This document shows, piece by piece, positions 21,619 to 25,449 of a stretch of DNA of 64,000 nt. The notes beneath the pieces were generated by a model. It saw nothing but the letters and a program-made list of their open reading frames with translations, searched no databases and was not told the DNA's origin. Every line of letters begins with the position of its first letter. Position 1 is the stretch's first letter. Source of the DNA: an uncultured Winogradskyella sp. (GTDB taxonomy: Bacteria > Bacteroidota > Bacteroidia > Flavobacteriales > Flavobacteriaceae). A program made the position numbers and the translations under genes. Location of the stretch: positions 1 to 64,000 of the forward strand of contig CAJXLB010000006.1 in assembly GCA_913055905.1 (NCBI GenBank), read 5' to 3'.

Positions 21619-21648
21619 TTCACTCAGATACCATTCACTCAGATACCA
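21619..21648. repeat. 15-base tandem direct repeat
   Basis: TTCACTCAGATACCA occurs twice in direct succession (21619-21633 and 21634-21648), 12 bases after tRNA-Leu. A tRNA 3' flank is a usual integration site, but no integrase is near and the repeat does not copy the tRNA end, so simple slippage duplication is more likely. Confidence 0.8.
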
Positions 21649-21661
21649 CTTAGCATCACTT

Positions 21662-21682
21662 CATAATTTTATTTAAATTATG
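21662..21682. promoter_or_regulatory. inverted repeat, candidate operator of the MerR-type regulator
   Basis: CATAATTT and AAATTATG are perfect inverted arms separated by five bases (TATTT). The repeat ends 31 bases before the probable -7 box TATTTTTG (21714-21721) of the regulator-crtIBZ unit, so a bound protein would cover the -33 region. Spaced palindromes near promoters are typical MerR-family sites. The role is inferred. Confidence 0.5.
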
Positions 21683-21742
21683 TTAATTATATGAATGATG
21701 TTACTATAAACCTTATTTTTGTTTAAGCATTTTTTATAAAAA

Positions 21743-22642
21743 ATGAACAACATAAAGAATAGATTCAGCATAAAAGATTTAGAGAATTTAACTGGTATAA
21801 AAGCGCATACCATACGCATTTGGGAAAAGCGCTATAATTTATTACAGCCCAAACGTACCGAAACCAATATTAGATATTACGATTTGGCAAGCTTTCAAAA
21901 GCTGTTGAACGTTAGCTACCTTAACAGGAACGGTTACAAAATTTCTAAGATTGCCACCATTGACGAGCATAAAATACCATTATTGGTTAGAGAAATAGCC
22001 GCAGAAAATAATATTGAAAGCCATGCCATTAATTCGTTTAAGTTGGCTATGCTCAATTTCGACCAGATTTTATTCTACAATACTTATGAGTCTTTATTAA
22101 AGGAAAAATCTTTTGATAAGGTTTTTTATGACGTCTTTATTCCTTTATTAACCGAAATAGGACTGCTTTGGCAAACAGACACCATTACTGAGGCTCATGA
22201 GCATTTCCTCACTACTTTGATAAGGCAGAAAATTCTTGTAAATACAGAAAAAGCACAATCGAGAAAAGTAAATGCATCCAAAAAAACATTTGTCCTGTAT
22301 TTACCAGACAATGAGATTCATGAGCTTGGACTTATGTTTATCAATCACGAAATAGTGCATAGAGGTTACCAATCCATATTTCTCGGTCAGAGTGTACCCT
22401 TAAATAGCCTAACAGCCTTATTTAATTATTACGAGGATATCACCTTTATTTCTTATTTTACGGTCAAGCCAGAAAAGGGAATGATCGATCAATACATCGA
22501 AGATTTTAACAAGACTATACTAAGCAGGCCAAAAACAGAATTTTGGATTTTGGGTCAAATGCTAAATGCACTAGATTTAAAGTGTTTACCGCCAAAAATA
22601 AAGCCGTTTAAGAGCATTGAATCATTAATAAAAGAACTTTAA
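21743..22642 (+). CDS. MerR-type regulator with CarH-like cobalamin-binding domain
   Basis: The 299-residue protein has an N-terminal MerR winged helix (about 8-75, with HTIRIWEKRYNLLQPKR), a four-helix segment and a Rossmann-like domain. Two signatures of B12 photoreceptors of the CarH/LitR type are kept exactly: Trp143 followed after nine residues by Glu153-His154 (W-x9-EH), and Glu191-x-His193-x-x-Gly196 (E-x-H-x-x-G), where the His would hold cobalt. In Thermus and Myxococcus, CarH represses crt genes in the dark and light breaks the tetramer. Here Gln144 follows the Trp, where I recall Thermus CarH having a second His ligand. The gene is five bases upstream of crtI, so carotenoid control is very likely; light sensing is an inference. 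Confidence 0.9.
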   Translation: MNNIKNRFSIKDLENLTGIKAHTIRIWEKRYNLLQPKRTETNIRYYDLASFQKLLNVSYLNRNGYKISKIATIDEHKIPLLVREIAAENNIESHAINSFKLAMLNFDQILFYNTYESLLKEKSFDKVFYDVFIPLLTEIGLLWQTDTITEAHEHFLTTLIRQKILVNTEKAQSRKVNASKKTFVLYLPDNEIHELGLMFINHEIVHRGYQSIFLGQSVPLNSLTALFNYYEDITFISYFTVKPEKGMIDQYIEDFNKTILSRPKTEFWILGQMLNALDLKCLPPKIKPFKSIESLIKEL

Positions 22643-22647
22643 TTAAA

Positions 22648-24111
22648 ATGGGTAAATCAATTTCTATAATTGGCTCTGGCTTTTCAGCTCTTTCGGCATC
22701 GTGCTATCTCGCACAAGCAGGTCACCATGTTTCCATTTATGAGAAAAACAAAACCGTAGGTGGACGCGCTCGCCAATTAAAAAGAGACGGATTTACGTTT
22801 GATATTGGTCCGAGCTGGTATTGGATGCCAGATATTTTTGAAAAATTTTTTAATGATTTTGGAAAAAGTACGAGCGACTACTATCAACTTGATAAACTCA
22901 ATCCAGCTTACAAAATATTCTTTTCTGATGAGGTCATTACCATCGGAGATCATCTCGATCAGATTTGTGAAGAATTTGAACGAATAGAAACAGGAAGTTC
23001 AAAACCTTTACGAAAATTCATTGCTCGAGCACAAGAGCATTATGATATTGCTATCAATAAAGTTGTTTTAAAACCAGGTTTAAGTCCATTTGAGCTTGTA
23101 ACTAAAGATACGGTTACCAGAGTAGACCAGTTTTTTAAAACAATAAGTTCAGAGGTTAGAAAAAATTTCAAAAACCCTAAGCTAATATCCACTTTAGAAT
23201 TTCCCGTTCTATTTCTTGGAGCCAAACCAAATCAAACGCCATCATTCTACTCTTTTATGAATTTTGCGGATTTTGGATTAGGTACATGGCACCCACAAGG
23301 CGGCATGTATGAAATTATAAAAGGCATGACAAAACTTGCTGAAAGTCTTGGCGTACAAATTAACACCGAAAGCAATGTTGAAAAAATCCATGTAGAAAAC
23401 GGCAAAACTACAGGTATCAGCGTAAACGGAAAATTCATAGCCTCTGATATAGTATTGAGTGGTGCAGATTATCACCATTCTGAAACACTTTTAGACAAAG
23501 AACACAGACAATACAGTGAAGCCTACTGGGATAAACGCACCTTTGCACCGTCTTCACTTCTATTTTACGTTGGTTTTGACAAAAAACTGCAAAATATAGA
23601 GCATCACAACCTGTTTTTTGATACAGACTTTGAAGAACATGCCAAAGAGATTTATGATAAGCCCAAATGGCCAAAAGACCCTCTTTTTTATGTCAATTTC
23701 CCTTCCGTTACGGATAGCAGTATGGCTCCGGAAGGCTGTGAAGCTGGCTTCTTCTTAATTCCAATTGCGCCAGGACTTGAAGACACGCCAGAGTTAAGAC
23801 AGCAGTATTTTGACCTAATTATAAATAGATTTGAGAAACGCACCAATCAAAATGTACTCAATCATATCATGTTTAAGGAATCATTTTGTGTTAAGGATTT
23901 TATAGATGAATACAACTCCTATAAAGGCAATGCCTATGGTATGGCAAATACCTTAATGCAAACGGCATTTCTTAGACCAAAATTAAAAAGTAAAAAGGTG
24001 GATAATCTTTACTTTACAGGACAATTAACGGTACCTGGACCAGGAGTGCCACCTTCTTTAATATCCGGAAAATTAGTGGCAGAACTCATTCAGAAGAACC
24101 AAAACATATGA
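22648..24111 (+). CDS. crtI: phytoene desaturase
   Basis: CrtI introduces four double bonds into phytoene to make lycopene, using FAD at the membrane. The 487-residue product has the N-terminal dinucleotide fold (IIGSGFSALSASCYLA), GGRARQLKRDGFTFDIGPSW, and the C-terminal carotenoid signature LYFTGQLTVPGPGVPPSLISGK. Its length is normal. It starts five bases after the MerR-type gene and precedes crtB. A second CrtI-like gene at 38063-39547 differs in sequence and context and is called crtD; this one, beside crtB, is the better candidate for phytoene desaturation. Confidence 0.95.
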   Translation: MGKSISIIGSGFSALSASCYLAQAGHHVSIYEKNKTVGGRARQLKRDGFTFDIGPSWYWMPDIFEKFFNDFGKSTSDYYQLDKLNPAYKIFFSDEVITIGDHLDQICEEFERIETGSSKPLRKFIARAQEHYDIAINKVVLKPGLSPFELVTKDTVTRVDQFFKTISSEVRKNFKNPKLISTLEFPVLFLGAKPNQTPSFYSFMNFADFGLGTWHPQGGMYEIIKGMTKLAESLGVQINTESNVEKIHVENGKTTGISVNGKFIASDIVLSGADYHHSETLLDKEHRQYSEAYWDKRTFAPSSLLFYVGFDKKLQNIEHHNLFFDTDFEEHAKEIYDKPKWPKDPLFYVNFPSVTDSSMAPEGCEAGFFLIPIAPGLEDTPELRQQYFDLIINRFEKRTNQNVLNHIMFKESFCVKDFIDEYNSYKGNAYGMANTLMQTAFLRPKLKSKKVDNLYFTGQLTVPGPGVPPSLISGKLVAELIQKNQNI

Positions 24112-24151
24112 TTAAGTAATCGTATAAATCTACAAGCTAAAAAAATTATCT

Positions 24152-24991
24152 ATGAAATCAATTTTTGACAACGTATCCAAAGAGTGCAGCAAATTAGTTA
24201 CCAATGCTTACAGCACGTCTTTTTCTATGGCTACAAAAATGCTATCAGATAGCATAAGACAGGATATATACAACATTTACGGGTTTGTGAGATTTGCAGA
24301 TGAGATTGTAGATACCTTCCATGATTATGATAAAGAAACCCTCTTTAAACATTTTGAAGATGATTTAGAACGTGCGTTGCGTGATAAAATTAGTCTAAAT
24401 CCAATTTTAAATGCGTTTCAGGAGACCTATCATAAATACAATATAGATAAGCATTTAGTTGATGCCTTTATGAATAGTATGCGATTAGACCTTCATAAAA
24501 AAGATTACTTAAGTGAAGAGGAATACAGAAACTATATCTACGGCTCTGCTGATGTCGTTGGATTAATGTGCCTAAAGGTATTTGTAAAAGGAGATAACAC
24601 TAAGTACAACGAACTAAAGGACTCTGCGATGCGTCTAGGTTCTGCGTTTCAAAAGGTAAATTTCCTCAGGGATTTAAAAGCAGACTTTGAGGATTTGAGC
24701 AGAACATATTTCCCAAATACGGATTTAAACCACTTAGATGAAGCGTCTAAGCAAGCCATTATTACTGATATAGAAAATGATTTTGCCGAAGGACTAAAAG
24801 GAATCAAACGCTTACCCTTAGAGGCTAGATTTGGTGTCTTCATGGCGTACCGCTATTACAGTAAACTTTTGGAAAAACTGAAGAAAACGCCTGCTTTGGA
24901 AATAAAATCTACTAGAATTAGGGTACCTAACTATAAAAAAGTAGAGTTACTCACTCGAAGTTACGTGAAATATCAATTAAATTTGCTCTAA
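24152..24991 (+). CDS. crtB: phytoene synthase
   Basis: CrtB condenses two geranylgeranyl diphosphates into phytoene, the first committed carotenoid step. The 279-residue product has both Asp-rich motifs for magnesium-diphosphate binding: DEIVDTFHDYD near 46-56 and FLRDLKADFEDLSRTYFP near 170-187. No crtE (geranylgeranyl diphosphate synthase) lies in the window, so it must be elsewhere. The gene is 40 bases after crtI and 11 bases before crtZ. Confidence 0.95.
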   Translation: MKSIFDNVSKECSKLVTNAYSTSFSMATKMLSDSIRQDIYNIYGFVRFADEIVDTFHDYDKETLFKHFEDDLERALRDKISLNPILNAFQETYHKYNIDKHLVDAFMNSMRLDLHKKDYLSEEEYRNYIYGSADVVGLMCLKVFVKGDNTKYNELKDSAMRLGSAFQKVNFLRDLKADFEDLSRTYFPNTDLNHLDEASKQAIITDIENDFAEGLKGIKRLPLEARFGVFMAYRYYSKLLEKLKKTPALEIKSTRIRVPNYKKVELLTRSYVKYQLNLL

Positions 24992-25002
24992 ACTCCACAA
25001 GA

Positions 25003-25449
25003 ATGCAAACTGTTTATTGGATTTTAATTTTTCTAACAACCTTTTTCGTTATGGAATTTAATGCGTGGTTTACGCACAAGTACATCATGCACGGCTTTTT
25101 ATGGAGCCTACATAAAGACCATCACCACAAGGACCACGACAGTTGGTTTGAACGAAATGATGCGTTTTTTATATTTTATGCGGTTGTGTCCATAGCGTGC
25201 TGGATCCTATGGGGAGAATATAATCTATGGTACTTTTTACCCATAGGTATAGGAATTATGGCTTACGGACTCGCCTACTTTATAGTACATGACATTTTTA
25301 TCCATCAGCGCATCAAATGGCTTAGAAATATTGATAATAAATACGCACGAGCCGTAAGACGCGCACACAAAATACATCATAAACATTTAGGTAAAGATGA
25401 TGGTGAAAACTTTGGGATGCTTATAGTACCTCTCAAGTACTTTAAATGA
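25003..25449 (+). CDS. crtZ: beta-carotene 3-hydroxylase
   Basis: This is a di-iron membrane hydroxylase that adds a 3-hydroxyl to beta-ionone rings. The 148 residues hold the expected histidine clusters: HKYIMHG, HKDHHHKDHDSW, HDIFIHQR and RRAHKIHHKHLGK, within four membrane segments. It is the last gene of the crtIBZ group. Its stop codon directly abuts the stop of the convergent thioredoxin-like gene, leaving no room for a conventional terminator. Confidence 0.95.
   Translation: MQTVYWILIFLTTFFVMEFNAWFTHKYIMHGFLWSLHKDHHHKDHDSWFERNDAFFIFYAVVSIACWILWGEYNLWYFLPIGIGIMAYGLAYFIVHDIFIHQRIKWLRNIDNKYARAVRRAHKIHHKHLGKDDGENFGMLIVPLKYFK

What the first reader, a model, noticed from the sequence alone, without database searches (positions are those of the whole stretch)
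21662..25449. CarH-type B12 photoreceptor candidate controlling a crtIBZ cluster in a Flavobacterium-like genome
The MerR-type regulator keeps W-x9-EH (Trp143, Glu153, His154) and E-x-H-x-x-G (His193), the two signatures that hold adenosylcobalamin in CarH. It is five bases from crtI, and an inverted repeat (CATAATTT/AAATTATG) lies just upstream of its -7 box. The residue after the Trp is Gln144, where I recall a second cobalt-ligating His in Thermus CarH, so the light-exposed state could differ from the Thermus protein. This would be a light- or B12-driven pigment switch.
Basis: partly seen in the sequence, partly recalled or inferred. Interest (0 to 1): 0.75.

Follow-up and report, generated by a model that had tools for sequence, protein, structure and literature searches.

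The report
Flavobacterial CarH-like light-switch candidate and operator
A marine flavobacterium carries a probable vitamin-B12 light sensor in front of its pigment genes, and the DNA site it most likely binds recurs in related bacteria in front of other light-related genes, among them the light-driven proton pump proteorhodopsin, which would give this family a shared light switch if confirmed at the bench.

Summary
The ORF at 21743-22642 is a MerR regulator with a CarH-like effector domain; W143, E153, E191 and H193 are invariant in 150 of 150 homologues read, H154 kept in 133, Q144 in 142. The AlphaFold model's twelve best PDB matches are Thermus CarH.

The conserved element lies at 21714-21750: a -7 box fused to TGTTTA-N18-TnnACA, whose second arm overlaps the start codon. 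In 82 loci with fixed spacing codon 2 is AAC in 80 and AAT in none; other Asn codons are 694 AAC, 1314 AAT. Many relatives carry a second copy before crtI as TTGTTTAAC-N14-GTTAAACAA. That palindrome tracks the regulator (68 of 87 genomes with it, 1 of 24 without) and recurs before fasciclin lipoproteins, a crtW-like desaturase, blh and proteorhodopsin; 13 of 20 hold-out sites hit families seen before.

Verdict: a divergent CarH/LitR-like photoregulator, not strictly CarH (the SxT/V...GG half of the B12 motif and the direct-repeat operator are not met). B12 binding, light response and repression are inferred. Against: the window's own genome shows no excess of loose operator matches.

The parts
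21743..22642 (+). CarH-like MerR regulator, 299 aa (stop included in the range): MerR DNA-binding domain about residues 8-74, four-helix B12 cap about 97-174, Rossmann-like half about 182-298
21719..21750 (+). operator candidate TTGTTTA-N18-TnnACAA; arms TGTTTA 21720-21725 and TGAACA 21744-21749, the second overlapping the start codon
21714..21721 (+). -7 box TATTTTTG (flavobacterial consensus TAnnTTTG, recalled), overlapping the operator
21681..21688 (+). TGTTAATT, a possible further half-site; seen in most of the nearest Winogradskyella loci printed, not tested statistically
   Evidence: by eye
22648..24111 (+). crtI, phytoene desaturase (NCBIfam CrtID above cut-off)
24152..24991 (+). crtB, phytoene synthase family (SQS_PSY)
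25003..25449 (+). probable crtZ, 148 aa with several His-box motifs (name by recall; no family match)

Best explanation
A divergent CarH/LitR-like photoregulator. In the dark an AdoCbl-loaded oligomer binds TGTTTA-N18-TnnACA across the -7 box and the start of its own gene, which in this genome heads a regulator-crtI-crtB-crtZ operon, and blocks transcription. Light breaks the Co-C bond, the protein leaves the DNA, and regulator plus pigment enzymes are made. In relatives the same operator, as a palindrome, also stands before crtI and before a set of light-related genes that includes proteorhodopsin. Shown by computation: conservation of the cofactor-contact residues, the CarH-like fold, DNA-level conservation of the operator, and the operator tracking the regulator. 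Inferred: AdoCbl binding, light response, repression, oligomer state, and that this protein is what binds the site.
For: W143, E153, E191, H193 invariant in 150 of 150; PF02607 in 86 of 86; PDB ranks 1-12 all full-length Thermus CarH, B12 domains up to TM(target) 0.84. Operator: at most 1 mismatch in 102 of 148 upstream regions against 11 of 1480 shuffles, distance to the start codon 15 nt in 82 of these 102; codon 2 AAC in 80 of 82 and AAT in 0, against 694 AAC and 1314 AAT elsewhere in the same genes; each arm carries the CarH half-site TnnACA (PMC9304148). Palindrome before the next crt gene, in 68 of 87 genomes with the regulator against 1 of 24 without. A crt gene is next in 146 of 150. 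The genome has a PduO-type adenosyltransferase and two other B12 proteins.
Against: No binding, spectrum or light data. The Rossmann half departs from the classic motif (x40, SxF, x30, LG) and 0 of 86 members match PF02310 at E<=0.01. H154 is lost in 17 of 150, mostly one clade. Four of 15 genomes without a PduO match still carry the regulator, two of them 99% complete and with intact pocket residues. In the window's genome loose operator matches are no more frequent than controls (5 against 5; 5 against 18), so a wider regulon is not shown there. Many of the 68 genomes' sites are the crt copy beside the regulator, so co-occurrence is partly by linkage (34 of 87 have two or more).
Confidence: 0.66

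Rival explanations
1. A CarA-like regulator: it binds the same operator, but B12 is not needed for its function, and light reaches it through another protein or through singlet oxygen.
For: Divergent Rossmann half; regulator kept in 4 of 15 genomes without PduO; CarA of Myxococcus is the B12-independent paralogue (PMC9304148, passages).
Against: By the published criterion CarA lacks the Trp of Wx9EH; here Trp, Glu and the ligand His are invariant in 150 of 150. The 4 exceptions all have other B12 proteins, so they can use B12.
Confidence: 0.15
2. A B12 (not light) sensor: the regulator matches pigment and other genes to AdoCbl supply, light being incidental.
For: The pocket residues predict AdoCbl binding but do not by themselves prove a light role.
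Against: The recurrent targets are light-related: carotenoid genes, blh, proteorhodopsin, cryptochrome; the signature residues are those of tested photoreceptors.
Confidence: 0.1
3. The palindrome belongs to another regulator, for instance the TetR_C_23 protein whose gene it precedes; the CarH-like protein uses other DNA.
For: The site stands 44-73 bp before that gene in 6 of 40 and 45-48 bp in 2 of 20 loci read.
Against: The site flanks and overlaps the start of the CarH-like gene in most relatives, tracks that gene and carries the CarH half-site. The distribution of the TetR-like gene was not tested.
Confidence: 0.08

Closest known systems
Thermus thermophilus CarH (PDB 5c8d, 5c8e; class I LitR)
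   Same: MerR domain plus helical cap and Rossmann-like half; Wx9EH and ExHxxG; crt control expected; TnnACA half-site
   Different: Gln instead of His after the Trp; SxF...LG instead of SxT/V...GG; half-sites divergent with N18 between them instead of tandem 11-bp direct repeats; operator on the -7 box and start codon
CtMerR of Chloracidobacterium and SasPcob photocobilin (PMC11796333)
   Same: Light-responsive AdoCbl domains without His after the Trp (Arg in CtMerR, Gln in SasPcob); both are in the Foldseek list
   Different: CtMerR and SasPcob carry the GxxH signature by that paper; the window has Asn where the Gly stands (N190); SasPcob has a biliverdin domain and is no MerR protein
Cystobacter CarH and Myxococcus CarA (PMC9304148)
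   Same: CarH/CarA relatives that act as dimers; perfect or imperfect inverted repeats are described at the Myxococcus operator
   Different: CarA lacks the Trp of Wx9EH; myxobacterial operators are about 55 bp with several 11-bp repeats
Class II LitR of Pseudomonas (PMC9758184)
   Same: The published light-inducible genes include photolyase, cryptochrome-like CryB, FolE and a short-chain dehydrogenase, kinds that also appear among the sites read here
   Different: Class II keeps only the four-helix bundle and works with LOV proteins; here a Rossmann-like half is predicted

Membership tests
CarH (class I LitR) | MerR DNA-binding domain with RxWERRY-type recognition helix | tested here: met
   MerR_1 54.7 bits; window reads RIWEKRY; W27, E28, R30, Y31 invariant in 150
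CarH (class I LitR) | Intact Wx9EH in the four-helix cap | tested here: met
   W143, E153, H154 in the window; in relatives W and E 150 of 150, H 133 of 150
CarH (class I LitR) | D/ExHx2G with the cobalt-ligating His | tested here: met
   E191, H193 in 150 of 150, G196 in 143 of 150
CarH (class I LitR) | x41-SxT/V-x22-27-GG, rest of the classic B12 motif (PMC9304148) | tested here: not met
   x40, SxF (F239), x30, L270-G271; no Gly at 270 among the 149 rows shown; PF02310 in 0 of 86 at E<=0.01
CarH (class I LitR) | NCBIfam CarH equivalog cut-off | tested here: not met
   66.2 bits against 400
CarH (class I LitR) | Operator of tandem 11-bp direct repeats nnnnTnnACAn | tested here: not met
   Half-site TnnACA is there, but two copies diverge with N18 between
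CarH (class I LitR) | AdoCbl binding, photolysis, light-driven change of oligomer and DNA release | not testable with these tools
   needs purified protein
Light-responsive B12 domains (SignatureFinder: GxxW, EH, GxxH, GxxxP) | All four signature motifs | tested here: not met
   GLLW 140-143, EH 153-154 and GQSVP 215-219 are met; GxxH is NEIH (N190), Gly in only 10 of 150
CarA | EH kept but Trp of Wx9EH lost | tested here: not met
   Trp in 150 of 150
Class II LitR | Only the four-helix bundle, no Rossmann half | tested here: not met
   Five strands alternating with helices predicted at 182-298, blocks of pLDDT above 90

The most novel reading that the evidence does not exclude
Flavobacteriaceae share one CarH-like light switch that B12-domain mining has missed because its Rossmann half is divergent. 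It uses a new operator form (divergent TnnACA half-sites, one arm written into the start codon of its own gene) and commands a light regulon of carotenoid synthesis, blh, proteorhodopsin, cryptochrome and fasciclin lipoproteins, so that a B12 photoreceptor decides when marine flavobacteria build their light-driven proton pump.
Probability: 0.5. Interest if true: 0.85.

Novelty: new variant of a known kind. Interest (0 to 1): 0.7.

Why it matters
Proteorhodopsin phototrophy is much studied in marine flavobacteria, yet my searches of the held library turned up no named regulator of the proteorhodopsin gene there (listings only, apart from passages of two papers; subscription papers are mostly not held). 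This work names a candidate sensor, an exact DNA site and a target list that can be tested in one cultured strain. It would tie pigment and proton-pump expression to B12. It also shows how a family can slip through published mining: that mining started from IPR006158 proteins, and none of 86 members here matches PF02310 at E<=0.01 (that PF02310 underlies IPR006158 is recalled).

Tried and rejected
TAnnTTTGTTTAA alone was uninformative in the own genome: 16 hits against 14 in the reversed control. The looser two-arm pattern gave 5 rows against 5 in the control there, and the palindrome with up to 3 mismatches 5 against 18: no sign of a wide regulon in the window's genome. Its one 1-mismatch site (C5:108146) has no ORF start close by, and its 2-mismatch site (C11:21693) stands 26 bp before an 82-aa ORF. 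The own rhodopsin (C12:35579; NaR-like by recall) and two similar genes lack the operator: 6, 6 and 7 mismatches. Tandem 11-bp repeats were looked for by eye in the window promoter: TGTTAA, TGTTAC and TGTTTA stand 18 and 21 bp apart, not 11. A first rhodopsin script missed most ORFs and was replaced. CobA-type adenosyltransferase was a poor marker (3 of 199 genomes, 1 over cut-off); PduO was used. A first residue count read 12 of 30 loci on the wrong strand and was replaced. MliR, a MerR-like regulator of Bizionia, lacks an effector domain and is unrelated (PMC9478572, passages).

Limits of the counts. The 40 non-crt sites were picked by me from a truncated list, not at random; in 5 or so of them the recurrent gene starts more than 100 bp from the site. 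The hold-out covered 36 genomes; 20 of 34 non-crt sites were read, in listing order, leaving out one proteorhodopsin site already counted; 13 of 20 match first-set targets, of which 12 belong to families named in the written prediction and one (L417) does not; none of the 20 was a proteorhodopsin, blh or photolyase gene. Those genomes had served in the protein and rhodopsin counts. The 80 named loci overlap the unnamed ones, so one search is no independent replicate. Rhodopsins: 54 matches, 50 loci read, 1 dropped for short upstream DNA, 3 NaR-like, 46 left. Lists of genomes with and without the regulator were typed by hand; 'with the regulator' means either lineage. Relatedness of the genomes is not corrected for in the Fisher tests.
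Full report
OBSERVATION. The ORF at 21743-22642 encodes 299 aa and ends five bases before crtI. It matches MerR_1 and the helical B12 cap PF02607 above cut-off, not the Rossmann B12 model PF02310. NCBIfam's CarH model gives 66 bits, far under its cut-off of 400. The best PDB sequence matches are Thermus CarH, E about 1e-12, aligned over residues 8-229.

FAMILY. Of 199 genomes of the same family (198 genera), 165 have a match at E<=1e-3, 161 of them strong (my hand count). I read 150 homologues from 149 genomes. G140, W143, E153, P188, E191, H193 and G215 are among 22 invariant positions; H154 is kept in 133, Q144 in 142, G196 in 143, P219 in 138. The nearest crt gene found on the same strand in the fetched flank is crtI in 134, crtB in 11, crtZ in 1, none in 4. 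A second lineage, about 30-38% identical to the window protein, is present in 12 genomes, 11 of them without the first; its 12 rows form one supported group. The nearest named relative is Winogradskyella luteola, 78% identity. AlphaFold with 86 sequences gave pLDDT 91.6 and a five-stranded alpha/beta C-terminal half. PDB ranks 1-12 are full-length Thermus CarH; B12 domains of CarH match with TM(target) up to 0.84 among the 50 shown.

OPERATOR. TAnnTTTGTTTAAC is found with at most one mismatch in 102 of 148 upstream regions, against 11 of 1480 shuffles; it ends exactly 15 nt before the start codon in 82 of these 102. One search suggests why. In the 82 loci whose GTTTAA-type arm begins 22 bp before the start codon, codon 2 is AAC 80 times and AAT never, and its last C is kept in 82 of 82. 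Elsewhere in the same genes Asn is AAC 694 and AAT 1314 times. In the other 68 loci codon 2 is AAC 17 and AAT 7 times. So it is the DNA that is conserved: the start region carries a second arm, TnnACA. The window has TGTTTA at 21720-21725, 18 bases, and TGAACA at 21744-21749. Of 80 loci from named genomes 71 have TGTnnA-N18-TnnACA at this place.

SECOND COPY. Of 100 loci with at least 30 bp before the next crt gene, TTTGTTTAAC is found with at most one mismatch in 75 and GTTAAACAA in 76; shuffles give 42 and 40 of 1000. Both arms with at most two mismatches occur in 81; the spacing is 21 bp in 61, and in 10 the two patterns fall on the same half-site. The typical form is TTGTTTAAC-N14-GTTAAACAA. 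In the window the gap to crtI is 5 bp, so there is no room for it and the genes look like one operon. Known CarH operators are tandem 11-bp repeats nnnnTnnACAn (PMC9304148, passages); here the same half-site TnnACA is arranged divergently.

REGULON IN RELATIVES. The palindrome with at most one mismatch occurs in 71 of 120 genomes: 151 sites against 7 for the reversed pattern. It is in 68 of 87 genomes with the regulator, 2 of 9 with only the second lineage, 1 of 24 with neither; that one (G079) is 81% complete. Two or more sites occur in 34 of the 87. Among 40 further sites read, recurrent neighbours are fasciclin lipoproteins (a BLAST cluster of 12; one checked by Pfam), a TetR_C_23 protein (6), a 142-aa protein without Pfam match (4), a secreted repeat protein (4), Porph_ging (2), a DUF2867 dehydrogenase (2), htpG (2, more than 130 bp away), and blh with proteorhodopsin on either side of one site (2). 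Single cases are a cryptochrome/photolyase, a GHMP kinase, a desaturase that I read as crtW-like, and a pterin synthase. I then wrote down a prediction and searched 36 more genomes: 27 have sites, 50 sites against 1 control. Of 20 non-crt sites read out of 34, 13 stand before a relative of a first-set target (12 of them in families named in the prediction); another is folE. In 7 of 20 no first-set target was found.

PROTEORHODOPSIN. 52 of 199 genomes have a rhodopsin. Of 46 proteorhodopsin-like genes with readable upstream DNA, 30 have the palindrome with at most 4 mismatches and 25 with at most 3; shuffles give 55 and 7 of 2300. In 24 of the 30 its centre lies 29-44 bp before the start codon. 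With the regulator present 28 of 38 have it, without 2 of 8 (Fisher p 0.015, no correction for relatedness); the two exceptions, G079 and G147, are 81% and 73% complete (tables). The window genome's own rhodopsin and two like it lack the site.

B12. The genome has a PduO-type adenosyltransferase and two other B12-binding frames of 716 and 1153 aa. Across the family 157 of 184 genomes with PduO have the regulator (either lineage), 4 of 15 without it; genome size and completeness confound this. The four exceptions all have B12-binding proteins.

HOW IT MOST LIKELY WORKS. The site lies on the -7 box and start codon, which fits repression. AdoCbl held by W143, E153, H154 and H193 would keep the dark, DNA-binding state; light would end it. 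Gln144 cannot give the bis-His light state of Thermus CarH, but SasPcob has Gln and CtMerR Arg there and both photolyse AdoCbl; CtMerR falls from tetramer to monomer in solution, while SasPcob without biliverdin stays a monomer (PMC11796333: part of section 5 and sections 9-12 read). All steps of this paragraph are inference for the window protein.

KNOWN OR NEW. A MerR gene before flavobacterial crt genes is in print for Nonlabens spongiae (PMC11855829, passages) and Sediminicola (PMC4732338, passage), without a CarH reading in what I saw. Light-induced pigment is known in Chryseobacterium lacus, whose authors report no car or lit genes (PMC7064467, passages). Class II LitR of Pseudomonas controls photolyase, CryB and FolE among others (PMC9758184, passages). 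Ten library searches listed no report of this system; I saw mainly titles and abstract starts, some lists were capped, and most subscription papers are not held. By strict criteria the protein is CarH-like rather than CarH.

Noticed in passing
21619-21648: A perfect tandem repeat, TTCACTCAGATACCA twice, right after the tRNA-Leu gene and before the regulator's promoter.
   Followed up: no
L234, L239, L246, L248, L414: A 142-145 aa protein without Pfam match (one member scanned) recurrently follows the palindrome: a possible unknown light-response gene.
   Followed up: partly
L109, L112, L114, L117, L118, L120, L122, L125, L126, L134-L136, L141-L143, L147: One clade has lost H154 of the EH pair (mostly Arg) but keeps W143 and H193; some of its genomes still have the palindrome. 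L105 lost it separately.
   Followed up: partly
L161-L171, L177: A second, distant CarH-like lineage with Gly, Ser, Thr or similar after the Trp and GG-like motifs in some members; crtI is near in some of the loci.
   Followed up: partly
own genome C12:35579-36295 (L278): The window's genome has a rhodopsin, NaR-like by recall, whose upstream DNA lacks the operator.
   Followed up: partly
L385, L390: Contigs titled Bifidobacterium breve and Klebsiella pneumoniae (metagenome bins) carry this flavobacterial regulator at 57-58% identity; probably mislabelled bins.
   Followed up: no
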